A DNA stretch of 64,000 nucleotides from Spiroplasma endosymbiont of Clivina fossor (GTDB lineage Bacteria; Bacillota_I; Bacilli_A; Mycoplasmatales; Nriv7), in NCBI RefSeq assembly GCF_964031115.1, contig NZ_OZ035006.1:372001-436000 (forward strand), written 5' to 3'. The notes below the pieces were generated by a model that was not told the origin of the DNA, searched no databases, and saw nothing but the letters and a program-made list of their open reading frames with translations. This document shows positions 1,258-51,806 of the stretch, piece by piece; the stretch's first letter is position 1, and each line of letters begins with the position of its first letter. The position numbers and the translations under genes were made by a program.

Positions 1258-1452
1258 AATAAAAAATTATTTTAATGTTGTTTTTATAAGCATTTTACTT
1301 AGTTTTTATAACCTTTTATTAAGATTATGTTTGTTAATATTAAATATTTTGTTTTATTACTTATTTTTCAAATAAAACGATAATTAAATTGTAGTTACTT
1401 TTCTTTCAAAATTAATCAAATATTTTTCCACCTAACAAAACTTTACGCGTCC
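1258..1452 (+). repeat. Plectrovirus right-terminus module (R)
   Basis: A non-coding block of about 195 bp ending in CCTAACAAAACTTTACGCGTCC-type sequence (last bases ACGCGTCC). Near-identical blocks lie at 6095-6199 (truncated), 13325-13520 (inverted), 36391-36586 and 43037-43216. Sequence identity stops at GCGTCC each time, so GCGTCC marks an element end. Confidence 0.75.
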
Positions 1453-2560: not shown

Positions 2561-2601
2561 TAGGAAAAATCTTATTCATTTTGAAAAGAGGGAAAATATT
2601 A

Positions 2602-3849
2602 ATGTTAATTAAAAAACTTTATGAAACATATAAAGCCCTTGTTGGTCAAGAAATTACTTTAAAAGGTTGAGTACGAACTAACCGCGATTCTGGTAAAGTA
2701 GGTTTTATTAGTTTAAATGATGGTAGTTATTTGGACAGTATTCAAGTTGTTTATAATCAAGAAATTAGAACTTTTAATGAAATTAAAAGTTTGCGAACAG
2801 GTTCTTCAATTGCAGTAACAGGAGTATTAGTTTTGCCAGATAAAGGTAAGGAATTGTTTGAAATTAAAGCAACAAATATAAAAATATATAATAATGCTGT
2901 GGAACAATATCCATTACAAAAAAAAGAACATTCTAATGATAATAATAAGTTAGAAGTAACATTAAATAGTATTTTAAAACAAAAGGATAAAGATTATGAA
3001 ATTATTATTGTGGATGATAAAGCAAAAGATGATACTCTAGAATATATTACTAAATTCTTTCAAGAGCATAGTGATACTATTAAAGTTATTAGTAGTTGAA
3101 AAGAAATTGAAACCGCTAATGCTTGAAATTTAGTATTAAGTAATGCTAAAGGAACTTATGTTTTATTTTTACAACCAGGATATAAATTAATAAATAATTT
3201 TATGGAAAATATTATCCAAGAAATTAATAATAATGATGAACCTGATTTAATTGAATTTATGGTTCAATATTCTAATGTTTATCATCATATTTCTTCACGA
3301 AGATTAAAAAATAATAATTTGTATCATCCACTTTTAAATCGGGAAGTCTTTGCTTTAATTCATCATTCACTATTTAATAAGTTATTTAAAAGAAAGATTA
3401 TTACTAGTCATAAAATTACTTTTCGTCGTTCTAATCGTTTTGATTTATTATTTATTTATAAAATATTGCCGTGAATTGAAACTTTATATACGAGCACTAA
3501 AATATTAGTAGATATTGAAATTGAGCCGTTCTTGAATTTTAATAGTTTTGATTTTTTAAAGCAATGAGTTCATATTTATAACTATTATAAGCAAATAAAC
3601 TTAGCACGAGAGTTAATTGAAGAATTAGAATATGCATTTGTTCGCTTTCATTACTATACATTTTTAAAAGTTATTGCTCCAACAGGAAATAAAGTATTAG
3701 TTAAAAAAGCTATTCAAGAAGTTACAAATAAAGTTACGAAAAGATTTCCTCACTGAGAAAAAAATCAATATCTCAATTTAGTACCAGATGATTTGTTCAA
3801 TAAAGATGTTGCTAAAGATTGAAAAAAATATTTAAAGAATTTTGTTTAA
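2602..3849 (+). CDS. Chimeric protein: AsnRS N-terminal domain fused to family 2 glycosyltransferase
   Basis: 415 aa in code 4, start ATG after GAAAAGAGGGAAAA. Residues 1-112 are the OB-fold anticodon-binding domain of asparaginyl-tRNA synthetase, nearly identical to the intact asnS at 10817-12175 (one Thr/Ile change seen). After the shared KKEHSN the sequence changes to a GT-A glycosyltransferase lacking its first strand: NNKLEVTLNSILKQ, EIIIVDDKAKDDT, then a long C-terminal region. The junction lies in AATGA, common to both parents. The next gene overlaps by one base, as in an operon. The GT part probably acted on membrane or surface glycolipid (inference). The fusion uses the asnS promoter and start; whether it makes a working enzyme is unknown. 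Confidence 0.85.
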
Positions 3850-6085: not shown

Positions 6086-6094
6086 AAAAAATAT

Positions 6095-6199
6095 TTTGTT
6101 TTATTACTTATTTTTCAAATAAAACGATAATTAAATTGTAGTTACTTTTCTTTCAAAATTAATCAAATATTTTTCCACCTAACAAAAATTTACGCGTCC
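6095..6199 (+). repeat. R module, truncated
   Basis: The last about 105 bp of the plectrovirus right-terminus block, ending TTACGCGTCC. It is joined on its left to IS1595-like A and on its right to the promoter region of the hydrolase gene. Confidence 0.7.
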
Positions 6200-10784: not shown

Positions 10785-10818
10785 AAAGATAAAGTTTTAA
10801 GAAACTTTATCTTTTTTT
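10785..10818. terminator. Bidirectional terminator between hydrolase remnant and asnS
   Basis: AAAGATAAAGTTT, loop TAAG, AAACTTTATCTTT and a T run. The genes converge on it and A/T runs flank both sides. Confidence 0.8.
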
Positions 10819-12175
10819 AAAATTCTAAATTATTAGGTACTCGTGGAAATGGTAAAACATCACGAATATTTGTCATCCCTGTCAAATACATAATTAATCG
10901 TTCTAATCCTAAACCAAACCCACCACTTGGAGCATACCCATACTGTCTTAAATTTAAATATCATTGAAAATCCTTAATATCTAAATTAGCCATTTGCATT
11001 TTTGCTAATAACTTTTCATAATTATCTTCCCTTTGACTACCACCAATTAATTCGCCAATTCCTGGGACTAATAAATCCATTGCTTGAACAGTTTTATTAT
11101 CCTCATTAGTTTTCATATAAAATGCTTTAATAACTTGTGGATAATTAGTAATAAATGTTGGCTTATTAGTTAATTGTTCACATAAATATCTTTCATGTTC
11201 AGTTTGTAAATCCATTCCTCAATGAATATTTTGATTTTCAAAACGGTCTTTAACTTTAATTAATTCCATAATTGTATCATCATAAGTCATAACTACAAAT
11301 TTAACAGTTACTACTGTCTTTAGTTTATCTAATAAATTATTATCAACATTATCATTTAGAAACTTTAATTCGTTTTTATTATTTTCTAAAATATAATTAA
11401 TAATATATTTAATTAATTCTTCTCCTAATTTGATATTTTCTTCTAACGAACTATATGCTACCTCTGGTTCTACCATTCAAAATTCAGCTACATGCCGAGA
11501 AGTATGAGACTTCTCGGCTCGAAAAGTTGGTCCAAAAGTATAAACACGATTAAATGCTTGTGTATATGCTTCAGCATTTAATTGTCCAGAAACAGTTAAA
11601 TTAGCCTTTTTAGAAAAGAAATCTTGTTGATAATTATTATCTTCTTCACGAGTTGTCACAATAAATGCTTCACCTGCACCTTCAGCATCATTACTAGTAA
11701 TAATTGGCGAATGCAAATATAAAAAGTCATTTCTTTGAAAAAAGCAATGAATCGCATAACTAACACTACTTCTAATCTTAAAAATAGCTCAAAACTTATT
11801 AGTTCGAGCTCGCAAATGAGCAATTTCTCGTAAATATTCATTAGAATGTTCTTTTTTTTGTAATGGATATTGTTCCACAGCATTATTATATATTTTTATA
11901 TTTGTTGCTTTAATTTCAAACAATTCCTTACCTTTATCTGGCAAAACTAATACTCCTGTTACTGCAATTGAAGAACCTGTTCGCAAACTTTTAATTTCAT
12001 TAAAAATTCTAATTTCTTGATTATAAACAACTTGAATACTGTCCAAATAACTACCATCATTTAAACTAATAAAACCTACTTTACCAGAATCGCGGTTAGT
12101 TCGTACTCAACCTTTTAAAGTAATTTCTTGACCAACAAGGGCTTTATATGTTTCATAAAGTTTTTTAATTAACAT
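10817..12175 (-). CDS. asnS: Asparaginyl-tRNA synthetase
   Basis: 452 aa in code 4, intact. Charges tRNA-Asn with asparagine in the cytosol. The N-terminal OB domain (about residues 1-110, [22 protein letters not shown]) is followed by a class II catalytic core: motif 2 region [20 protein letters not shown] and motif 3 near the C-terminus, [13 protein letters not shown] as read from 10875-10915. Start ATG at 12175 has GAAAAGAGGGAAAA upstream, and its promoter region abuts an IS5. The N-terminal third and the whole upstream region are duplicated at 890-2941. Confidence 0.95.
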
Positions 12176-12243
12176 TAATATTTTCCCTCTTTTCAAAATG
12201 AATAAGATTTTTCCTAATTATAACACATATAATTTTATATAAT

Positions 12244-13324: not shown

Positions 13325-13520
13325 GGACGCGTAAAGTTTTGTTAGGTGGAAAAATATTTGATTAATTTTGAAAGAAAAGTAACTACAATTTAATTATCGT
13401 TTTATTTGAAAAATAAGTAATAAAACAAAATATTTAATATTAACAAACATAATCTTAATAAAAGGTTATAAAAACTAAGTAAAATGCTTATAAAAACAAC
13501 ATTAAAATAATTTTTTATTT
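13325..13520 (-). repeat. R module, inverted
   Basis: Reverse complement of 1258-1452, starting GGACGCGTAAAG. It lies between IS5 copy 4 and an IS1595-like A fragment, in the same order as the inverted duplicate at 890-2941. Confidence 0.75.
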
Positions 13521-13885
13521 TAATTTTGTCGAAAACTCTTGATAAAATAAAAAAAATCATCAACTTGATAATTTTAAAAGGCTTTTATGTAAAATTACTA
13601 TTTTTACTTTAACTTTTTTATACATTAAAATATAATACCGCTGTTTGTTGGTTTGAAGTTAAACCCTTATGTTGGTATTTTCATTTTCAGAGATTTAAAT
13701 AATTTTGAAAATTAGTAAAACCTAAACCATGATAATGAATTAAGGCTTCTTTAAGACTAGATTGTAATTTACTGATTTTATTTAAGTTACGATAACTAGC
13801 TTCAGGATTAATTGTTGTTTTAGTTACACATAAAGTAGAATTTGTTTGTTTTGCTACTAAAAAATATAATTTTTGCATATCAGAA
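13521..13885 (-). mobile_element. IS1595-like A, 3' fragment
   Basis: Contains the 3' terminal repeat (TAATTTTGTCG at 13521) and the last about 90 codons of the transposase (stop at 13618-13620). It breaks at CAGAA, where it meets a short forward piece of the same IS and then phage module Q. Confidence 0.82.
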
Positions 13886-14033
13886 TTAATTAACGAAAAT
13901 TCAATAATATGATAAAATGGTAACGAATAAAAATGACAATAACAAGAAAGGCAGGGTTAGTTTAGTAATTAAATAATATATAGCTGATTGTTTTACTTCT
14001 TCAAAGCAATACCTAAGAAAACTAAACGCGGCC
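13886..14033 (+). repeat. Plectrovirus-type left-terminus module Q
   Basis: Begins with a forward IS1595 scrap (TTAATTAACGAAAATTCAAT), then about 130 bp containing GAAAGGCAGGGTTAG and ending CCTAAGAAAACTAAACGCGGCC. Copies at 29754-29888 and 40361-40499 end at the same CGCG(A/G)CC. Non-coding. Confidence 0.65.
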
Positions 14034-18121: not shown

Positions 18122-19615
18122 ATGATAAAATCAAATAAAAATATGTTAAAAATGCTAGTTACATTAGCATTTACAATGTCACCAGTTTTTGCTGTTGCTG
18201 CTTGTAATCCTAGTACTAAAGATGACCAAGCAAAATTAAAAACAGGAGACTTAAATAAATTAAGGATTATATCCCCTGAAATTGAAGCTTTTAATAATGT
18301 TAAAGACAAAACTGCTGTAACAACAGACGAAATTACTACTGTTGTGAATACAATTGTTAAAACTGCCATTGATCAAATTGTTACTAAAACTAATTTAAAT
18401 GTTGACTATCGTATTAAAATTGAAAAAGATGCTACAACAATTACGGGTACTTATGATTTGACAAGCAAAACTGATTTTGCTAGAACTTTTGATATTACAG
18501 TTATTAAAACTCAAACTGCAAAATTAAAAGGAATACATAAATCACAAAGCATTGTGTTTCCGAAATTAAAAGAAGTAGAAGAAGTTGGTAGTGAATTTGG
18601 TGTTACCAAAACAAATTTAAGGACCTTAACAAATATTGATTCTGCAATAGCTGTTGAAGCCACTGAAACTACTAATACAAGTGCTGATATGATTAAAACT
18701 GCTGTTGAAGCAAAAATTTTAGAAGTAATTAAAAAATTAACAAATGCAAAAGATGTTTTAGAGACTGATTTAGATATTAATGTTAAAAAACGAAATGGTA
18801 CAGATGACTTAGATGACTTAGATGCTACAACTAGTTTAGAAAATGAACTTACTGTAAGTGTAACAGTTAAAGCAAGTAAAATTGGTGAAGCAAAACTTGA
18901 AGGTACAAAAACTATTACTGTAAAAATTGCTAAAATTACACCAGTAGTGGTAAAAGCAGATTTAAGTAAGTTAGAAGCGATTGATTCTGCAATAGCTGTT
19001 GAAGCCACTGAAACTACTAATACAAGTGCTGATATGATTAAAACTGCTGTTGAAGCAAAAATTTTAGAAGTAATTAAAAAATTAACAAATGCAAAAGATG
19101 TTTTAGAGATTGATTTAGATATTAATGTTAAAAAACAAAATGGTACAGATGACTTAGATGCTACAACTAGTTTAGAAAATGAACTTACTGTAAGTGTAAC
19201 AGTTAAAGCAAGTAAAATTGGTGAAGCAAAACTTGAAGGTACAAAAACTATTACTGTAAAAATTGTTAAAATTACACCAGTAGTGGTAAAAGCAGATTTA
19301 AGTAAGTTAGAAGCGATTGATTCTGCAATAGCTGTTGAAGCCACTGAAACTACTAATACAAGTGCTGATATGATTAAAACTGCTGTTGAAGCAAAAATTT
19401 TAGAAGTAATTAAAAAATTAACAAATGCAAAAGATGTTTTAGAGACTGATTTAGATATTAATGTTAAAAAACAAAATGGTACAGATGACTTAGATGCTAC
19501 AACTAGTTTAGAAAATGAACTTACTGTAAGTGTAACAGTTAAAGCAAGTAAAATTGGTGAAGCAAAACTTGAAGGTACAAAAACTATTACTGTAAAAATT
19601 GCTCAATTAATTTAA
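18122..19615 (+). CDS. Spiralin-like surface lipoprotein with three 112-aa repeats
   Basis: 497 aa. Signal peptide with lipobox: hydrophobic MLVTLAFTMSPVFAVAAC, lipid-modified Cys28. After a unique region (about 29-170) come three tandem repeats beginning IDSAIAVEATETTNTSADM and ending TITVKIA. The units are 336 bp, the first with 9 extra bp (an added DDL). The repeat sequence (DLSKLEAI ... LEGTKTITVKI) recalls the repeats of spiralin, the major S. citri surface lipoprotein. Ribosome site AAAGGAAGG. The DNA copies are nearly identical, so unit number can change by recombination; the paralogue at 30097 has seven. Likely anchored on the outer face of the membrane, role unknown (adhesion or immune shielding are guesses). 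Confidence 0.88.
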   Translation: MIKSNKNMLKMLVTLAFTMSPVFAVAACNPSTKDDQAKLKTGDLNKLRIISPEIEAFNNVKDKTAVTTDEITTVVNTIVKTAIDQIVTKTNLNVDYRIKIEKDATTITGTYDLTSKTDFARTFDITVIKTQTAKLKGIHKSQSIVFPKLKEVEEVGSEFGVTKTNLRTLTNIDSAIAVEATETTNTSADMIKTAVEAKILEVIKKLTNAKDVLETDLDINVKKRNGTDDLDDLDATTSLENELTVSVTVKASKIGEAKLEGTKTITVKIAKITPVVVKADLSKLEAIDSAIAVEATETTNTSADMIKTAVEAKILEVIKKLTNAKDVLEIDLDINVKKQNGTDDLDATTSLENELTVSVTVKASKIGEAKLEGTKTITVKIVKITPVVVKADLSKLEAIDSAIAVEATETTNTSADMIKTAVEAKILEVIKKLTNAKDVLETDLDINVKKQNGTDDLDATTSLENELTVSVTVKASKIGEAKLEGTKTITVKIAQLI

Positions 19616-29220: not shown

Positions 29221-29696
29221 AATATATAAACTAAGTTAGTTAACTTAGTTTTTTAAACACTTATATATCGCAGATTTAAGTGTTTAACAAGCTTTGTTAG
29301 TAAATTTTGTTTTTTAATTAGATAAAGATTTTAATAATTTTAAACTTAGCATACCTCTATATAGAAATTTTTACACTTTAATATCCGCATCCTACCCTTG
29401 GAACTAATTTAATAGCGTGTATATTTTTAGGAAATCCACCCATTCATTTTTTTATTGCAAAATGAAACAAATTGCTATAGCTAATAGGATGTTATCTATT
29501 AACTGGTAAACTTCTTTTGGTTATGGCGACCACCCACAATTTATCGTGCTTTAATACATACCAACATTATTAATTCACTTGTATTTAATTTTCAAAGAAC
29601 AAACTTTTAACACCTTATAAAATAAAAAGACAATCATTGCTGACTGTCTTAATACTTATTCAAATATTTTCCCACCTAGCAAAACTTTATGCGTCC
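29221..29696. repeat. Plectrovirus intergenic/terminus region (R')
   Basis: Non-coding. It opens with a perfect palindrome AACTAAGTTAGTTAACTTAG.. and T run, then AAACACTTA/TAAGTGTTT, then a G/C-richer stretch with several short stems, and a hairpin AAGACAATCA/TGACTGTCTT near 29630. It ends CTAGCAAAACTTTATGCGTCC. A near-identical block is at 35041-35528. Such hairpin clusters fit the origin or packaging region of a filamentous ssDNA phage (inference). Confidence 0.7.
29229..29254 (+). terminator. Palindromic terminator in R'
   Basis: AACTAAGTTA, GT, TAACTTAGTT, then TTTT. Confidence 0.65.
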
Positions 29697-30096: not shown

Positions 30097-32925
30097 ATGA
30101 TAAAATCAAATAAAAATATGTTAAAAATGCTAGTTGCATTAGCATTTACAATGTCACCAGTTTTTGCTGTTGCTGCTTGTAATCCTAGTACTAAAGATGA
30201 CCAAGCAAAATTAAAAACAGGAGACTTAAATAAATTAAGGATTATATCCCCTGAAATTGAAGCTTTTAATAATGTTAAAGACAAAACTGCTGTAACAACA
30301 GACGAAATTACTACTGTTGTAAATACAATTGTTAAAACTGCCATTGATCAAATTGTTACTAAAACTAATTTAAATGTTGACTATCATATTAAAATTGAAA
30401 AAGATGCTACAACAATTACGGGTACTTATGATTTGACAAGCAAAACTGATTTTGCTAGAACTTTTGATATTACAGTTATTAAAACTCAAACTGCAAAATT
30501 AAAAGGAATACATAAATCACAAAGCATTGTGTTTCCGAAATTAAAAGAAGTAGAAGAAGTTGGTAGTGAATTTGGTGTTACCAAAACAGATTTAAGGACC
30601 TTAACAAATATTGATTCTGCAATAGCTGTTGAAGCCACTGAAACTACTAATACAAGTGCTGATATGATTAAAACTGCTGTTGAAGCAAAAATTTTAGAAG
30701 TAATTAAAAAATTAACAAATGCAAAAGATGTTTTAGAGACTGATTTAGATATTAATGTTAAAAAACGAAATGGTACAGATGACTTAGATGCTACAACTAG
30801 TTTAGAAAATGAACTTACTGTAAGTGTAACAGTTAAAGCAAGTAAAATTGGTGAAGCAAAACTTGAAGGTACAAAAACTATTACTGTAAAAATTGCTAAA
30901 ATTACACCAGTAGTGGTAAAAGCAGATTTAAGTAAGTTAGAAGCGATTGATTCTGCAATAGCTGTTGAAGCCACTGAAACTACTAATACAAGTGCTGATA
31001 TGATTAAAACTGCTGTTGAAGCAAAAATTTTAGAAGTAATTAAAAAATTAACAAATGCAAAAGATGTTTTAGAGACTGATTTAGATATTAATGTTAAAAA
31101 ACAAAATAGTACAGATGACTTAGATGCTACAACTAGTTTAGAAAATGAACTTACTGTAAGTGTAACAGTTAAAGCAAGTAAAATTGGTGAAGCAAAACTT
31201 GAAGGTACAAAAACTATTACTGTAAAAATTGCTAAAATTACACCAGTAGTGGTAAAAGCAGATTTAAGTAAGTTAGAAGCGATTGATTCTGCAATAGCTG
31301 TTGAAGCCACTGAAACTACTAATACAAGTGCTGATATGATTAAAACTGCTGTTGAAGCAAAAATTTTAGAAGTAATTAAAAAATTAACAAATGCAAAAGA
31401 TGTTTTAGAGACTGATTTAGATATTAATGTTAAAAAACAAAATGGTACAGATGACTTAGATGCTACAACTAGTTTAGAAAATGAACTTACTGTAAGTGTA
31501 ACAGTTAAAGCAAGTAAAATTGGTGAAGCAAAACTTGAAGGTACAAAAACTATTACTGTAAAAATTGCTAAAATTACACCAGTAGTGGTAAAAGCAGATT
31601 TAAGTAAGTTAGAAGCGATTGATTCTGCAATAGCTGTTGAAGCCACTGAAACTACTAATACAAGTGCTGATATGATTAAAACTGCTGTTGAAGCAAAAAT
31701 TTTAGAAGTAATTAAAAAATTAACAAATGCAAAAGATGTTTTAGAGACTGATTTAGATATTAATGTTAAAAAACGAAATGGTACAGATGACTTAGATGCT
31801 ACAACTAGTTTAGAAAATGAACTTACTGTAAGTGTAACAGTTAAAGCAAGTAAAATTGGTGAAGCAAAACTTGAAGGTACAAAAACTATTACTGTAAAAA
31901 TTGCTAAAATTACACCAGTAGTGGTAAAAGCAGATTTAAGTAAGTTAGAAGCGATTGATTCTGCAATAGCTGTTGAAGCCACTGAAACTACTAATACAAG
32001 TGCTGATATGATTAAAACTGCTGTTGAAGCAAAAATTTTAGAAGTAATTAAAAAATTAACAAATGCAAAAGATGTTTTAGAGACTGATTTAGATATTAAT
32101 GTTAAAAAACAAAATGGTACAGATGACTTAGATGCTACAACTAGTTTAGAAAATGAACTTACTGTAAGTGTAACAGTTAAAGCAAGTAAAATTGGTGAAG
32201 CAAAACTTGAAGGTACAAAAACTATTACTGTAAAAATTGCTAAAATTACACCAGTAGTGGTAAAAGCAGATTTAAGTAAGTTAGAAGCGATTGATTCTGC
32301 AATAGCTGTTGAAGCCACTGAAACTACTAATACAAGTGCTGATATGATTAAAACTGCTGTTGAAGCAAAAATTTTAGAAGTAATTAAAAAATTAACAAAT
32401 GCAAAAGATGTTTTAGAGACTGATTTAGATATTAATGTTAAAAAACAAAATGGTACAGATGACTTAGATGCTACAACTAGTTTAGAAAATGAACTTACTG
32501 TAAGTGTAACAGTTAAAGCAAGTAAAATTGGTGAAGCAAAACTTGAAGGTACAAAAACTATTACTGTAAAAATTGCTAAAATTACACCAGTAGTGGTAAA
32601 AGCAGATTTAAGTAAGTTAGAAGCGATTGATTCTGCAATAGCTGTTGAAGCCACTGAAACTACTAATACAAGTGCTGATATGATTAAAACTGCTGTTGAA
32701 GCAAAAATTTTAGAAGTAATTAAAAAATTAACAAATGCAAAAGATGTTTTAGAGACTGATTTAGATATTAATGTTAAAAAACAAAATGGTACAGATGACT
32801 TAGATGCTACAACTAGTTTAGAAAATGAACTTACTGTAAGTGTAACAGTTAAAGCAAGTAAAATTGGTGAAGCAAAACTTGAAGGTACAAAAACTATTAC
32901 TGTAAAAATTGCTCAATTAATTTAA
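30097..32925 (+). CDS. Spiralin-like surface lipoprotein with seven 112-aa repeats
   Basis: 942 aa, paralogue of 18122-19615. Same signal peptide and lipobox (Cys28), same unique N-terminal region, then seven repeats of exactly 336 bp, starting at 30613, 30949, 31285, 31621, 31957, 32293 and 32629. Differences between units are single codons (K-R-N-G, K-Q-N-S or K-Q-N-G before TDDLD). Such uniformity implies recent expansion or gene conversion. Upstream AT repeats and ribosome site AAAGGAAGG at 30078. The long open frame on the opposite strand is only a by-product of the repeats. Expected on the cell surface; ligand unknown. Confidence 0.9.
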   Translation: MIKSNKNMLKMLVALAFTMSPVFAVAACNPSTKDDQAKLKTGDLNKLRIISPEIEAFNNVKDKTAVTTDEITTVVNTIVKTAIDQIVTKTNLNVDYHIKIEKDATTITGTYDLTSKTDFARTFDITVIKTQTAKLKGIHKSQSIVFPKLKEVEEVGSEFGVTKTDLRTLTNIDSAIAVEATETTNTSADMIKTAVEAKILEVIKKLTNAKDVLETDLDINVKKRNGTDDLDATTSLENELTVSVTVKASKIGEAKLEGTKTITVKIAKITPVVVKADLSKLEAIDSAIAVEATETTNTSADMIKTAVEAKILEVIKKLTNAKDVLETDLDINVKKQNSTDDLDATTSLENELTVSVTVKASKIGEAKLEGTKTITVKIAKITPVVVKADLSKLEAIDSAIAVEATETTNTSADMIKTAVEAKILEVIKKLTNAKDVLETDLDINVKKQNGTDDLDATTSLENELTVSVTVKASKIGEAKLEGTKTITVKIAKITPVVVKADLSKLEAIDSAIAVEATETTNTSADMIKTAVEAKILEVIKKLTNAKDVLETDLDINVKKRNGTDDLDATTSLENELTVSVTVKASKIGEAKLEGTKTITVKIAKITPVVVKADLSKLEAIDSAIAVEATETTNTSADMIKTAVEAKILEVIKKLTNAKDVLETDLDINVKKQNGTDDLDATTSLENELTVSVTVKASKIGEAKLEGTKTITVKIAKITPVVVKADLSKLEAIDSAIAVEATETTNTSADMIKTAVEAKILEVIKKLTNAKDVLETDLDINVKKQNGTDDLDATTSLENELTVSVTVKASKIGEAKLEGTKTITVKIAKITPVVVKADLSKLEAIDSAIAVEATETTNTSADMIKTAVEAKILEVIKKLTNAKDVLETDLDINVKKQNGTDDLDATTSLENELTVSVTVKASKIGEAKLEGTKTITVKIAQLI

Positions 32926-34105: not shown

Positions 34106-34297
34106 AATAAATCACACCATAATTGCTGTCAAGAATCAAAAAGCAATGTTTGCTATTAAAAGCCAAAGTGTTTCTTGGGTTAAATCAATTTCTTTGCCAC
34201 CACTAATATGAGCCGGAATAGTTGTAATTTGAATAAATAAATCTCAGAAAGTTTGTTTAATTTGTTCTCAATTAAATTCTTTTAAATTTACTGTCAT
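34106..34297 (-). pseudogene. Plectrovirus membrane protein, 3' end cut by IS5
   Basis: Starts MTVNLKEFNWEQIKQTFWDL at 34297, homologue of the intact 50874-51104. It is cut after FWFLTAIMVW by the end of IS5 copy 11. Confidence 0.75.
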
Positions 34298-34300
34298 TTT

Positions 34301-34462
34301 TTATCTCCCAAAAATCATTTTTATTGGTAAATACATAATTGAAATTAACGCGAAAAGAAAAGTAATGATAATAATTAATCCGGCAATAAAAGCAACTTGT
34401 GCAGGCATTTTTTCTATCGGAACAAACAGTTTTAAGAATTCCATAATAATTTCTCAAAACAT
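34301..34462 (-). CDS. Plectrovirus 53-aa membrane protein
   Basis: MFWEIIMEFLKLFVPIEKM..., one long hydrophobic segment (AFIAGLIIIITFLFALISIMYL), short basic tail. The ATG overlaps the stop of the preceding gene. In the prophage at 50710-50870 the same gene has lost a base in an A run, so this is the better copy. Likely a minor virion or assembly membrane protein, by context only. Confidence 0.7.
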
Positions 34463-34683
34463 TATTTTTTATTCTCATTATTTTCTTTTGAATTAGGAGC
34501 TTTAACTCATTCTTCAAAGCGAGCAATAAATACTTTTTCGTCTTTTGTAAAATTACCAGTATTATTTTTAATGGCATTTTTATATTTAATTCGCATTTTT
34601 ATTTTGGCATAAATTTTATAAGCAAAATATGCCAATAGCATTATGCAAATGATAATAAATATTATTCCAATCGCAATATTCAT
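34462..34683 (-). CDS. Plectrovirus 73-aa single-span protein
   Basis: MNIAIGIIFIIICIMLLAYF is an N-terminal membrane anchor, followed by a charged domain (NFTKDEKVFIARFEEWVKA). It lies between two other small genes with 2-bp spacing and a 1-bp overlap, a typical compact phage operon. Function unknown. Confidence 0.7.
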
Positions 34684-34685
34684 TT

Positions 34686-35012
34686 TTAAACTCCTTTAAA
34701 ATAGTTATAATTTATATCTTTTTTGTTGTTTTCTTTTTCGGTAATGAAGAAGCCTAATAATTCTTGGCCTTTAATTAATTTGGTTTCTTTTTCTTTTTGA
34801 TTAATTGAGATTACTTGATATTTACTATCTTTTATTATTCCGATGCAAATTGAATTTTCATATTTTCCTTTATAAACAAATCGTTTTGGAAACCAAATAC
34901 CGATTTGTTCATTAAATCATGGAATTTTTGGTGCTTTAATAAGCATTGCGTTTTGCGTTTCTTTTAAGAGATATTTTTTAGTATTTAAGAAAATGTTTTC
35001 AATGTTTTTCAT
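34686..35012 (-). CDS. Plectrovirus 108-aa hypothetical protein
   Basis: ATG at 35012 after AAGAAAGGTAATTTACT. It starts MKNIENIFLNTKKYLLKETQ; soluble, basic, beta-rich in the middle (IGIWFPKRFVYKGKYE). It is the first gene after the R' region. A ssDNA-binding role would fit a filamentous phage but no motif shows it. Confidence 0.65.
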
Positions 35013-35040
35013 AGTAAATTACCTTTCTTATGGATAAACT

Positions 35041-35528
35041 AAGTTATATTAACTAAGTTAGTTAACTTAGTTTTTTAAACACTTATATATCGCAGATTTA
35101 AGTGTTTAACAAGCTTTGTTAGTAAATTTTGTTTTTTTTTTTTTTAATTAGATAAATATTTTAATAATTTTAAACATAATATACCCTTATTATAGAAATT
35201 TCTACACTTTAATGTCCGCATCCTACCCTTGGAACTAATTTAATAGCGTGTATATTTTTAGGAAATCCACCCATTCATTTTTTTATTGCAAAACAAAACA
35301 AACTGCTATAGTTAATAGAGGGTGTTTGTCTATTAACTGGTAAACTTCTTTTGGTTATGGCGACCACCCACAATTTATCGTGTTTTAATACATACCAACA
35401 TTATTAATTCACTTGTATTTAATTTTCAAAGAACAAATTTAACACCTTATAAAATAAAAAGACAATCATTGCTGACTGTCTTAATACTTATTCAAATCTT
35501 TTCCTACCTAACAAAACTTTATGCGTCC
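35041..35528. repeat. Plectrovirus intergenic/terminus region (R'), second copy
   Basis: As 29221-29696: palindrome AACTAAGTTA-GT-TAACTTAGTT at 35051, further stems, the AAGACAATCA/TGACTGTCTT hairpin near 35460, and the end ATGCGTCC at 35528. It has a longer T run (T15) near 35134. Confidence 0.7.
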
Positions 35529-36390: not shown

Positions 36391-36586
36391 AAATAAAAAA
36401 TTATTTTAATGTTGTTTTTATAAGCATTTTACTTAGTTTTTATAACCTTTTATTAAGATTATGTTTGTTAATATTAAATATTTTGTTTTATTACTTATTT
36501 TTCAAATAAAACGATAATTAAATTGTAGTTACTTTTTTTTCAAAATTAATCAAATATTTTTCCACCTAACAAAACTTTACGCGTCC
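36391..36586 (+). repeat. R module
   Basis: As 1258-1452. It ends ACGCGTCC at 36586 and is followed by another IS1595 fragment. Confidence 0.75.
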
Positions 36587-39493: not shown

Positions 39494-40215
39494 ATTGTTT
39501 TTGTAAACGTTTGGTGTTTGTGGATTTAACATAAATATTGTTATTATTATCAATTGCCATTTGAATACAGCATTTAGTATTAGTTGCGAATGGGTCAAGG
39601 TGAATTCTTCGTGGATCAGTTTTATATTTGAAATTTCCTTTGTGGATTTCTTTAATAAATGTTTCATCGATTTGGATTTTACCAGATAATTTTTTAAATT
39701 TTAATTGGGTATTTTCTAATTGTTTTGATTTCATTAATTTTTGACGATTATATCAAGCAGTTTTTAATGTAGTTTTAATAAAACGAGAAATTGTTTTACT
39801 AGATTGCCCCAGCAATGAAATTTGAATCAATAAATTTCATTGTTCATAATTTAAATGACTTCAATAAATAAAATGATTACGAAAAGCGTCAAAACTTGCA
39901 CGGCAATTTTTACATAAATATTTTTGTTTTCCTTCTGAATTATGTCCATTTTTAACGCAATGGTAAGATTCACATTTAGGGCATTTAATACCTTGCGCTC
40001 TAAATTTTTGATCAATTTCATTTAAACGTTTTTGTTTTTTTATTAATTCTGCTTGTTGTTTGACTTTTTCATAAAATTCTAAAAATTGATCATCTGTTAA
40101 AGTATTTACTAGTTCTTGAATTATTTTTTCCATAATTATTATCCACCTCTATCATATTAAAATATACCTAAAATTAAGTATATTCAATAAATATCAAGAG
40201 TTTTCGACAAAATTA
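39494..40215 (-). mobile_element. IS1595-like A, 5' half of a split copy
   Basis: Transposase from the ATG at 40133 down to RLQKQ at 39494, then IS5. The 5' terminal repeat ends at 40215 and meets an inverted L module. It complements the 3' half at 36596-36913. Confidence 0.85.
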
Positions 40216-40337
40216 AAAATTTTTTACAACAAAAATCATACATAAGAAATATATACTTAATTTGCATATTGAAATAATTTATAGTAAATGATTATTTTTT
40301 CTTTTTTAAAAAATACCTAAGAAAACTAAACGCGACC
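40216..40337 (-). repeat. Plectrovirus left-terminus module (L), inverted
   Basis: Reverse complement of 42913-43036, ending CCTAAGAAAACTAAACGCGACC. Non-coding, AT-rich. Confidence 0.72.
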
Positions 40338-40499
40338 ATTAAAAATTTTTTATTGTGTAAAAATTCAATAATATGATAGAATCATCACAAATAAAAATGA
40401 CAATAACAAGAAAGGCAGGGTTAGTTTAGTAATTAAATAATATAATTAGCTGATTGTTTTACTTCTTCAAAGCAATACCTAAGAAAACTAAACGCGACC
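40338..40499 (+). repeat. Module Q, third copy
   Basis: After about 23 bp of other sequence, the GAAAGGCAGGGTTAG ... CTAAACGCGACC block. The adjoining sequence (CGATAGTAGAG) begins ordinary chromosome. Confidence 0.65.
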
Positions 40500-42854: not shown

Positions 42855-44243
42855 ATGATCGCGATGACATGTTATGGGTGTGGTTCAGAATTACAATCTA
42901 ATAATAATTTACGGTCGCGTTTAGTTTTCTTAGGTATTTTTTAAAAAAGAAAAAATAATCATTTACTATAAATTATTTCAATATGCAAATTAAGTATATA
43001 TTTCTTATGTATGATTTTTGTTGTAAAAAATTATTTTAATGTTGTTTTTATAAGCATTTTACTTAGTTTCTATAAAATTTTATTGAGATTATGTTTGTTA
43101 ATATTAAATATTTTGTTTTATTACTTATTTTTCAAATAAAACGATAATTAAATTGTAGTTACTTTTCTTTCAAAATTAATCAAATATTTTTCCACCTAAC
43201 AAAACTTTACGCGTCCCTAATTACAAGCTGGTTACATTTCAAAAATTCAAAATAATTCTCATTTTTATTGTTGGCGATGTTTTCGGATTAAACATTATAA
43301 TGAATTAGAAAATGTTAATAATGTTAATTATAACTATGATGATTTATTTATGAAGATTAAAAATAATGATGGGGTAGTTTTTTATGTTATTAATATAATG
43401 GACTTTTTTGGAAGTTTAATTTGGCAGTATCATTATCAATTAAAGAACTTAAGATTTTATTTAATAATTAATAAAATTGATACTATAATGCAATATATTG
43501 CTTTTAATAAACTTAAAGATTGAGTTAGAAAACAAATAACATTAATTGGACTAGAACCAATTGATATTATTCTTGTTAGTAGTACAAAAAATTATTTTAT
43601 TGATGAATTTGTTGAATTTTTAAAAAAACAACAAACTGATATTTATTGAATTGGAAAAACTAATGTTGGTAAAAGCTCATTAATTAATAAGGTATTATCA
43701 TTACAACAACAGTTTCCTCGTAAATTACCATTAATAAGTTATTTTCCTAATACAACAATGAATCTAATTGCTATTGCTTATCGTGACTACTTATATTTTT
43801 ATGATACTCCAGGATTTGCTAATAGCAATGAATTAAATTATTATTTAAATAATAATGCTTATCGTAATTTAAATTTTGAATCAAAAATTAAAAGTAAAAC
43901 TTATCAGTTAGAATATGGACAAACAATAACTATTGTGGGATTATTTCAATTTTCGTTTATTGAAGGGTTAGCAACATCATTTCATTTTTATGGTTCTAAT
44001 AAATTAGTTTTACATCGTAGTAAAATTGAAAATTGTTCGCGAATTTGAAAGCAACAAATTTTACTTTTAAAACCAAATACTAAAATGGTTGAACATCAAA
44101 TTAAAATTTCTAAAGATAATGAAGAAAAAATTGGCATTCAAATTTATGGTTATGGATGAATTTCATTTAAAGCTCGAAAGCAACAATTGAGGTTGCTGTT
44201 ACCAGAAAATTATGATTATCAAATTATTAAACCAATAGTATAA
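42855..44243 (+). pseudogene. yqeH: YqeH-type circularly permuted GTPase, interrupted after codon 19
   Basis: Codons 1-19 (MIAMTCYGCGSELQSNNNL) are at 42855-42911. Then a 304-bp phage-terminus element intervenes, and the frame resumes at 43221 with QAGYISKIQN ... FYCWRCFRIKHYNE. The four-Cys zinc motif (CYGC ... CWRC) is split. The remainder is intact: circularly permuted GTPase with G4 LIINKID before G1 WIGKTNVGKSSLINK and G3 DTPG. YqeH acts in assembly of the small ribosomal subunit and is usually important for growth. The insert keeps the frame by length but brings a TAA after LRSRLVFLGIF. Restart from an internal codon would give a GTPase without the zinc domain. Confidence 0.88.
42913..43216 (+). 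mobile_element. 304-bp element made of plectrovirus ends (L and R modules)
   Basis: Begins GGTCGCGTTTAGTTTTCTTAG and ends in the inverse-like CTAACAAAACTTTACGCGTCC. Over 22 bp the two ends match as inverted repeats except four positions. The flanks AATTTAC and AATTAC are an imperfect direct repeat. No ORF. Left half equals the L module at 50459 and (inverted) 40216; right half equals the R modules. Confidence 0.8.
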
Positions 44244-50458: not shown

Positions 50459-50579
50459 GGTCGCGTTTAGTTTTCTTAGGTATTTTTTAAAAAAGAAAAA
50501 ATAATCATTTACTATAAATTATTTCAATATTCAAATTAAGTATATATTTCTTATGTATGATTTTTGTTGTAAAAAATTA
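50459..50579 (+). repeat. L module, left end of prophage
   Basis: GGTCGCGTTTAGTTTTCTTAG and about 100 bp more, identical to 42913-43036 apart from a base or two. It is followed directly by a truncated phage gene, so phage DNA after the end has been deleted. Confidence 0.78.
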
Positions 50580-50710
50580 GAATTAAATATAAAAATGCCA
50601 TTAAAAATAATACTGGTAATTTTACAAAAGATGAAAAAGTATTTATTGCTCGCTTTGAAGAATGAGTTAAAGCTCCTAATTCAAAAGAAAATAATGAGAA
50701 TAAAAAATAA
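50580..50710 (+). pseudogene. Plectrovirus 73-aa protein, N-terminus missing
   Basis: Frame from RIKYKNAIKNNTGNF to the stop at 50708, matching the C-terminal 44 residues of 34462-34683. The membrane anchor is missing. Confidence 0.7.
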
Positions 50711-50870
50711 TGTTTTGAGAAATTATTATGGAATTTTTAAAACTGTTTGTTCCGATAAAAAAATGCCTGCACAAGTTGCTTTTATTGCCGGATTAATTAT
50801 TATCATTACTTTTCTTTTCGCGTTAATTTCAATTATGTATTTACCGATAAAAATGATTTTTGGGAGATAG
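50710..50870 (+). pseudogene. Plectrovirus 53-aa membrane protein, frameshifted
   Basis: Homologue of 34301-34462. It reads CCGATAAAAAAATGCC where the other copy has CCGATAGAAAAAATGCC, one base less. The ATG at 50763 would still give the last 35 residues with the membrane span. Confidence 0.7.
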
Positions 50871-50873
50871 AAA

Positions 50874-51104
50874 ATGACAATAAACTTAAAAGAATTTAAT
50901 TGAGAACAAATTAAACAAACTTTCTGAGATTTATTTATTCAAATTACAACCATTCCCGCTCATATTACTGGTGGTAAAGAAATTAATTTAACCGAAGCAC
51001 CACTTTGGCTTTTAATAGCAAACATTGCTTTTTGATTCTTGACAGCAATTATGGTGTGATTTATTCTAATGCTACTTTGAAAAACCATATCAGTATTTAG
51101 ATAG
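50874..51104 (+). CDS. Plectrovirus 76-aa membrane protein
   Basis: MTINLKEFNWEQIKQTFWDL... then a hydrophobic half (LWLLIANIAFWFLTAIMVWF and ILMLLWKTISVF), two probable spans. Three bases after the preceding stop. Small hydrophobic proteins of this sort are virion or assembly components in filamentous phages; the exact role is unknown. Confidence 0.72.
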
Positions 51105-51115
51105 AAACAAAAGTA

Positions 51116-51250
51116 ATGTCAAGAAGTTACATTGTGATGCATTCACAAAGAAATTCAAAATTAATTAGGAAAAAATACAATCGTGTTAACGATAATCGCG
51201 GTTTTAACAAATTTAAGAAAAACTTTGAATATAAATGATGAATGTTTTAA
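51116..51250 (+). CDS. Plectrovirus 44-aa basic protein
   Basis: MSRSYIVMHSQRNSKLIRKK..., very rich in K, R and N, ending YKWWMF. It could bind phage DNA in the virion (inference from charge). No strong ribosome site. Confidence 0.6.
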
Positions 51251-51270
51251 AAAAGAAAGGGGGTGATTAT

Positions 51271-51516
51271 ATGATTGGAACTTTCTTGGCCGATGCACCA
51301 GCAACAGTAGAAAAAATAACAGCTAGTGACGCGATAACTAAATTATGAAATGCAATTATAACGGCATTTACTAAAATGTGAGAAATTATTGCTGTTAATA
51401 TGCCACAAGTCGGTAACTTCTTTGCTGACTACTGAATATTCATTTTTCCATTTATTTTGGCAATATTCTTTATTTGCTTTAAAATGTTTGAAAAACTACT
51501 TGGAGCAGTACGCTAA
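51271..51516 (+). CDS. Plectrovirus major coat protein candidate
   Basis: 81 aa with a very strong ribosome site (AAAGGGGGTGATTAT). MIGTFLADAPATVEKITASD is amphipathic or surface-exposed, and DYWIFIFPFILAIFFICFKMF is a single membrane span with a short C-terminal tail KLLGAVR. This is the plan of filamentous-phage major coat proteins, which sit in the membrane before assembly. Intact here although most neighbours are damaged. Confidence 0.75.
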
Positions 51517-51806
51517 TAAAAAAATAAAGTGAGGTGCAAGATGAAATTTTGCAAATGAATAATAGAAAAAAATAACCATTTTATTGAATTAAATCGCACC
51601 TCATTTTTAATTTTATGACATTGGGGAGCAATTTGATATATTTACAACGGTTATTTTAAAAACATTGTGAGCTATTTATTTTTAGCAGGTTGTATTTTAA
51701 TTTTTCTTTTTAAAATCAGTAATTTAACACAAATTAACAAAGTTATTAATTTCTTAAAAATTCACCATTAAATATTGTTATTGGTTCATTAGGAACAGGA
51801 AAAACT

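What the first reader, a model, noticed from the sequence alone, without database searches (positions are those of the whole stretch)
42913..43216. MITE-like element built from plectrovirus ends splits yqeH
The 304-bp insert has inverted terminal repeats of about 22 bp (GGTCGCGTTTAGTTTT against GGACGCGTAAAGTTTT), an imperfect direct repeat at the target and no gene. Its halves equal the L and R modules that bound phage fragments elsewhere. It looks like a phage genome reduced to its ends that still moved. The target is a GTPase gene normally important for ribosome assembly.
Basis: partly seen in the sequence, partly recalled or inferred. Interest (0 to 1): 0.85.

Follow-up and report, generated by a model that had tools for sequence, protein, structure and literature searches.

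The report
Mini-transposon sharing a phage's ends
A 304-base gene-less piece of DNA has jumped into and broken a ribosome-assembly gene of an insect-associated Spiroplasma; dozens of copies exist in five related genomes, and it carries the same ends as a thread-like phage whose own transposase most likely moves it.

Summary
Window 42913-43216 is a 304-bp, gene-less insertion with 23-bp imperfect ITRs. It splits yqeH, whose empty site is present in two relatives. It is a real mobile family. At least 18 full-length copies lie in this 2.05-Mb genome, and 304- or 282-293-bp copies lie in all four congeners searched. There are 182 L ends in this genome against 0 in the reversed control. Eight- or nine-bp target duplications occur far above chance.

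Intact plectrovirus-type units (6.9-12.1 kb) in the same genomes carry the same ends and make 9-bp duplications (18 of 21 units exact). Only the outer ~65 bp (L) and ~41 bp (R) are shared, so the 304-bp element is not simply a phage with its middle deleted. Most 'L and R modules' elsewhere are MITE halves split by an IS1595-family IS.

The likely mobiliser is a UPF0236/Mbov_0401-type (Mutator-superfamily) DDE transposase next to the L end of the phage units, present in all five genomes. IS30, the transposase of the classical plectrovirus R8A2B, is excluded: three of the five genomes lack it.

One oddity remains. In several copies, yqeH included, one target-duplication copy is 9 bp and the other 8.

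The parts
42913..43216 (+). 304-bp non-autonomous element (MITE), gene-less
   Evidence: >=18 full-length copies in this genome and copies in all 4 congeners
42913..42935 (+). L terminal inverted repeat GGTCGCGTTTAGTTTTCTTAGGT
   Evidence: 182 matches (<=3 mismatches) in G000, 0 for the reversed control pattern
43194..43216 (-). R terminal inverted repeat GGACGCGTAAAGTTTTGTTAGGT (read on - strand)
   Evidence: 119 matches in G000, control 0; 19/23 identical to L
42904..42912 (+). L-side target duplication ATAATTTAC (ancestral sequence)
   Evidence: empty sites in L224 (G001) and L228 (G002)
43217..43224 (+). R-side target duplication CTAATTAC: one T lost and first base A to C relative to the ancestral 9-mer
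42855..42912 (+). 5' fragment of yqeH (19 codons); reading continues 10 codons into the element, then stop; insertion lies between the two Cys pairs of the zinc finger
   Evidence: 29-codon truncated product; intact 358 codons in G001
43225..44243 (+). 3' remainder of yqeH; open from ATG 43350 with all GTPase and C-terminal domains
   Evidence: MMR_HSR1, RsgA_GTPase, YqeH-like_C
40207..40337 (-). MITE L half (1-119) split by IS1595-family IS
   Evidence: 8-bp duplication TAAAAAAT (MITE 112-119) shared with R halves
36394..36586 (+). MITE R half (112-304) with IS1595 on its inner side
1260..1452 (+). MITE R half (112-304) beside IS1595
13325..14033 (-). 709-bp chimera: MITE R half (112-304) + 391 bp of IS1595 + 138 bp of phage L end; same 709-bp unit at L030 985-1693
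6089..6199 (+). MITE R part (194-304) beside IS1595
50459..50579 (+). MITE L part (1-121) fused to plectrovirus DNA (50572-51752), overlap AAAAATTA
51235..51516 (+). plectrovirus-type coat gene in that phage segment; 33-64 relatives per genome in the genus
34106..35528 (-). plectrovirus fragment ending at its R end (35488-35528)
29223..29696 (-). plectrovirus fragment ending at its R end (29656-29696)
40338..40499 (+). phage L end fragment (terminus at 40499)

Best explanation
The insert is a MITE: a 304-bp, gene-less transposon moved in trans by the transposase of a plectrovirus-type prophage that has the same terminal repeats. Shown: multi-copy, fixed ends, target duplications, an empty target site in relatives, complete phage units with the same ends and the same kind of duplication, and a DDE transposase gene 130-230 bp inside the phage L end. 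Inferred: that this transposase (UPF0236/Mbov_0401 family, Mutator superfamily) binds the shared ~23-bp termini of both elements and inserts them nearly at random with an 8-9-bp staggered cut, probably through a circular form. Insertion into yqeH cuts the protein off after 19 native residues; a shorter GTPase lacking the zinc finger could only be made from a downstream start.
For: Copies: G000; G001-G004; outside the genus only low-scoring AT-rich matches. End counts with zero in the reversed control. Target duplications in 58 copies: 10 exact 8-9 bp against about 0.05 expected from mismatched flank pairs; in G003, 12 copies are 98.7-100% identical, 7 with perfect duplications (an eighth, L114, shows one once a 1-bp offset is allowed). 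Empty sites for yqeH and three other loci. Phage units with the same ends; 18 of 21 measured units have exact duplications, 17 of 9 bp and 1 of 8 bp. Transposase: NCBIfam NF046004, E=1e-85, above the curated cutoff; Pfam UPF0236; L end within 250 bp of its 3' end in 29 of the 30 best loci; 61/29/75/28/113 matches in the five genomes. Prokaryotic Mutator-type transposases, Mycoplasma ICEs included, make 8-9-bp duplications and use circular forms (PMC3942029). Tandem phage units in G004 separated by 5 bp (GAAAA) look like such a circle junction.
Against: No experiment shows the transposase acting on the MITE. In the related ICEA, DDE transposase mutants were not complemented in trans (PMC6030558), so a cis preference is possible. 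Many MITE copies (41 of 58) have no recognisable duplication, presumably through age or rearrangement between copies. MITE duplications are less regular than phage ones.
Confidence: 0.86

Rival explanations
1. Internal-deletion derivative: the element is literally a plectrovirus genome that lost its middle and kept ~100-190 bp of each end.
For: Shared ends; a phage segment fused to a MITE L half at 50459-51752; MITEs are commonly thought to arise by deletion (PMC11389934).
Against: Only 65 bp (82%) and 41 bp (88-90%) match the phage units; the ~200-bp interior matches none of the phage DNA examined, while 282-336-bp variants in the genomes all keep it.
Confidence: 0.12
2. The element is mobilised by the IS30-family transposase found inside one phage unit (L098), as in the classical phage R8A2B.
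For: IS30 transposase lies inside a unit with a perfect 9-bp duplication; R8A2B uses IS30.
Against: That IS30 occurs in 150+ copies in G001 and G003 as an ordinary IS and is absent from G000, G002 and G004, which carry the MITE and phage units.
Confidence: 0.02
3. Another resident IS (IS1595, IS256 or IS5-like) moves it.
For: IS256-type (Mutator) transposases also make 8-9-bp duplications and IS1595 makes 8-bp ones; all are abundant in the window.
Against: Their ends differ: IS1595 TTTTAATTTTGTCGAAAACTCTTGAT, IS5-like TAGACTTCTTGCAAAATTAA, and the IS256 copy has no GGTCGCG-type end; none has GGTCGCG/GGACGCG ends, whereas the phage units do.
Confidence: 0.03
4. Not mobile now: an ancient repeat spread by recombination and segmental duplication.
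For: 41 of 58 copies lack a clear target duplication; the genomes are full of repeats and rearranged flanks.
Against: Perfect duplications in 10 copies, near-identical copies in G003, empty sites for four insertions.
Confidence: 0.02

Closest known systems
Bacterial MITEs (gene-less elements of ~300 nt moved by another element's transposase; PMC11389934)
   Same: Size, ITRs, no gene, target duplications, multi-copy, helper with the same ends in the same genome
   Different: The helper is a filamentous-phage-type prophage rather than a simple IS; only the outer 41-65 bp are shared with it
Vespertiliovirus plectroviruses R8A2B and C74 (Plectroviridae)
   Same: The units encode a plectrovirus-type assembly protein (~33% identical to R8A2B, C74, SVTS2, SkV1CR23x) and coat-like gene, and integrate as transposons; ICTV states the packaged genome is a circular transposition intermediate (PMC8295915)
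   Different: R8A2B carries an IS30-type and C74 an IS481-like transposase; these units carry a UPF0236/Mbov_0401-type one. The R8A2B and C74 genomes lack the GGTCGCG ends (best 8-10 mismatches of 23)
Mycoplasma ICE (ICEA/Mbov_0401) and ISLre2 transposases of the Mutator superfamily (PMC3942029)
   Same: Transposase family (NF046004 above cutoff), 8-9-bp duplications, ITRs, circular forms
   Different: Here the enzyme sits on a phage and a MITE shares its ends; ISLre2 model scores below its cutoff
Spiroplasma phage MaM-2019a (S. poulsonii, 19 kb, tailed-phage-type genes)
   Same: Encodes the same transposase family at one end (NF046004 E=3e-78)
   Different: Unrelated capsid genes (terminase, portal), ~33% transposase identity, different end sequences

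Membership tests
MITE | Short, no protein gene | tested here: met
   304 bp; longest ATG ORF 42 codons
MITE | Terminal inverted repeats at fixed positions | tested here: met
   19/23 positions; nearly all full copies begin and end at GG...CC
MITE | Target-site duplication | tested here: met
   10 exact 8-9 bp of 58 versus ~0.05 expected; imperfect 9/8 in the window copy
MITE | Many copies at different loci; empty sites | tested here: met
MITE | Same ends as an autonomous element with a transposase in the same genome | tested here: met
   phage units in G000 with 9-bp duplications and transposase gene
MITE | Transposition in trans by that transposase | not testable with these tools
   needs a bench assay
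Mutator-superfamily (UPF0236/Mbov_0401) transposon - phage units | Transposase family | tested here: met
   NF046004 288 bits, cutoff 162; UPF0236 2e-25
Mutator-superfamily (UPF0236/Mbov_0401) transposon - phage units | 8-9-bp duplication | tested here: met
   18 of 21 units
ISLre2 IS family proper | Transposase above the curated cutoff | tested here: not met
   105 bits, cutoff 200
Plectroviridae - phage units | Homologous assembly and coat proteins | tested here: inconclusive
   assembly protein matches five plectroviruses at 31-34%; the coat gene itself gave no phage-record match
Plectroviridae - phage units | Packaging as circular ssDNA in rod virions | not testable with these tools
   no virion data
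Phage satellite | Packaged into the helper's particles | not testable with these tools
   no virion data

The most novel reading that the evidence does not exclude
The element is a true satellite of a transposing filamentous phage: the phage transposase makes 304-nt circles of it, some of which are replicated or packaged as tiny single-stranded genomes, so the MITE spreads between cells as well as within genomes. Its short length also leads to a distinct insertion product in which one target-duplication copy loses a base.
Probability: 0.1. Interest if true: 0.8.

Novelty: new variant of a known kind. Interest (0 to 1): 0.55.

Why it matters
It ties a MITE family to a named autonomous partner that is a phage, and shows a third transposase type used by plectrovirus-like phages, after IS30 in R8A2B and an IS481-like one in C74. 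Together the phage and MITE contribute tens to nearly two hundred ends per genome, a large part of the repeat load of these symbionts, and they break housekeeping genes such as yqeH. The system (phage, transposase, satellite with known ends and recent copies) is small enough to test trans-mobilisation and circle formation directly.

Tried and rejected
IS30 in L098 as the mobiliser: first accepted, then rejected when one search showed it is an unrelated IS absent from three genomes. BLAST of the element against phage and plasmid records: no meaningful match. Pattern and protein scans of viral contigs for the ends, the transposase or the assembly protein: nothing. Rfam: nothing. DNA fold of the element: modest (z -2.4), explained mostly by the ITRs. 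Promoter scan: near expectation for AT-rich DNA. Reading 10 copies of the 112-304 half with one junction as a phage module: rejected, it is an IS1595 insertion at MITE 112-119 that was then copied. Literature: no held paper found on MITEs or UPF0236/ISLre2 elements in Spiroplasma.

Full report
What is there. The window lies at G000:C1:372001-436000 of a 2.05-Mb single-contig Spiroplasma genome (genetic code 4). At 42913-43216 sits a 304-bp insert without a gene (longest ATG ORF 42 codons). Its ends form a 23-bp imperfect inverted repeat (19/23; 0 of 20,000 random stretches reach this). It lies in yqeH between the two cysteine pairs of the zinc finger. The frame from ATG 42855 gives 19 native codons plus 10 from the insert. 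In G001 (intact gene, 358 codons) and G002 the site is empty...AATAATAATTTACAAGCTGG..., and the insertion added 304 + 8 bp.

It is a mobile family. G000 holds at least 18 full-length copies at 89-100% identity (only 40 candidates were scored, so this is a lower bound). All four congeners hold it too, at 12 or more matches each, with full-length 304-bp or 282-293-bp forms. Outside the genus only low-scoring AT-rich matches appear. The L end occurs 182, 56, 87, 62 and 182 times in G000-G004 and the R end 119, 44, 51, 37 and 103 times, with zero for the reversed patterns. In 58 aligned copies, 10 have exact 8-9-bp target duplications (about 0.05 expected) and 7 more have duplications that differ by one base (0.12 expected). 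In G003, 12 copies are 98.7-100% identical. Seven of these have perfect duplications, and an eighth shows one when a 1-bp offset is allowed. This points to a recent burst.

The partner. Plectrovirus-type units in all five genomes (33-64 coat genes each) begin and end with the same termini. Against the MITE they match 65 bp at the L end (82%) and 41 bp at the R end (88-90%), and nothing between. The assembly protein of a unit matches phages R8A2B, C74, SVTS2, SkV1CR23x and SVGII3 at 31-34%, so 'plectrovirus-type' is justified, although the coat gene itself found no phage record. Of 21 units whose two flanks I could read, 17 have exact 9-bp and 1 an exact 8-bp duplication. G000 itself has a complete unit at 1605431-1617509 with duplication ATACATTAT.

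The enzyme. I first took the IS30 transposase inside unit L098 for the phage's own, as in R8A2B. A genome search corrected this. It is an ordinary IS with 150+ copies in G001 and G003 and none in G000, G002 or G004, although those carry the MITE and the phage. The gene common to the units is a 460-aa UPF0236 protein. NCBIfam calls it Mbov_0401-family ICE transposase-like (E=1e-85, above cutoff), with weaker matches to ISLre2 and ISKra4, all Mutator superfamily. It occurs in all five genomes (61, 29, 75, 28 and 113 matches). Its 3' end lies within 250 bp of an L end in 29 of the 30 best loci. Published Mutator-type elements, Mycoplasma ICEs included, make 8-9-bp duplications and use circles with 6-10-bp spacers (PMC3942029); two tandem units in G004 are separated by GAAAA. 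In known phages, R8A2B carries IS30, C74 an IS481-like enzyme, and the tailed-type phage MaM-2019a the same Mbov_0401-type enzyme. The combination with a plectrovirus is not in the sources I could search.

Origin and the 'modules'. The interior of the MITE (about 66-264) matches no phage DNA examined, and most short L-R elements I found between 233 and 1511 bp retain it wholly or partly, with IS1595 or small insertions accounting for the longer ones. So it shares ends with the phage but is not simply the phage minus its middle; how it arose is open. The repeated halves come from one IS1595-family insertion at MITE 112-119 (8-bp duplication TAAAAAAT), copied many times. A 709-bp chimera (phage L end, IS1595 piece, MITE R half) occurs at two loci.

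An unexplained regularity. In L005, L007 and L012 the empty sites show an ancestral 9-mer; the copy next to the R end keeps all 9 and the copy next to the L end has lost one base. The yqeH copy shows it mirrored: ancestral ATAATTTAC on the L side, CTAATTAC on the R side. L113 and L139 have the same pattern unpolarised. The lost base always lies in a run at positions 5-6 from the element end. As the G000 copies concerned are about 97-100% identical to the yqeH copy, simple decay is unlikely; slippage during gap repair is my guess. Phage units rarely show it.

Verdict. The anatomy, spread and link to the phage are shown; mobilisation by the UPF0236-type transposase is inferred (0.86). yqeH appears dispensable here: it is also broken in G003 and G004 and frameshifted in G002.

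Noticed in passing
L001, L005, L007, L012, L113, L139 (flanks of the 304-bp element): The two target-duplication copies differ by one base, 9 versus 8; polarised with empty sites in four cases; the lost base is in a run at positions 5-6 from the element end.
   Followed up: partly
L098 7062-9632 (G001): A phage unit flanked by a 9-bp duplication carries an 857-aa gene with ankyrin repeats and an OTU domain, the domain pair known from Spaid-type male-killing proteins.
   Followed up: partly
L303 7237-9363, L091 2439-4568: Phage units in G000 and G004 carry a ~710-aa beta-propeller (PQQ/BamB-like) gene on the strand opposite to the phage genes, near the transposase; looks like cargo.
   Followed up: partly
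L279 2720-3027 (G004): A 308-bp element with L and R ends has inserted into a copy of the UPF0236-type transposase gene of its presumed helper.
   Followed up: no
window 13325-14033 and L030 985-1693: Identical-structure 709-bp chimera of phage L end, IS1595 fragment and MITE R half at two loci, suggesting it moves as a unit.
   Followed up: partly
L090/L091 (G004:170943-193297): Two 11,175-bp phage units in tandem separated by GAAAA, like an integrated circle junction.
   Followed up: partly
G001:117.7 kb, G000:835.9 kb, L031: Independent phage or MITE insertions at GACTTGGTACATAA or a close variant (GACTTAGTACATAA in L031), a repeated target sequence.
   Followed up: no
window 10817-12196 and 2581-3849: An asparaginyl/aspartyl-type tRNA synthetase gene and a second ORF with the same N-terminal OB domain fused to a glycosyltransferase domain; probably a recombination product.
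   Followed up: no
window 18122-19615 and 30097-32925: Two lipoprotein genes built of near-identical ~100-aa repeats in different copy number.
   Followed up: no
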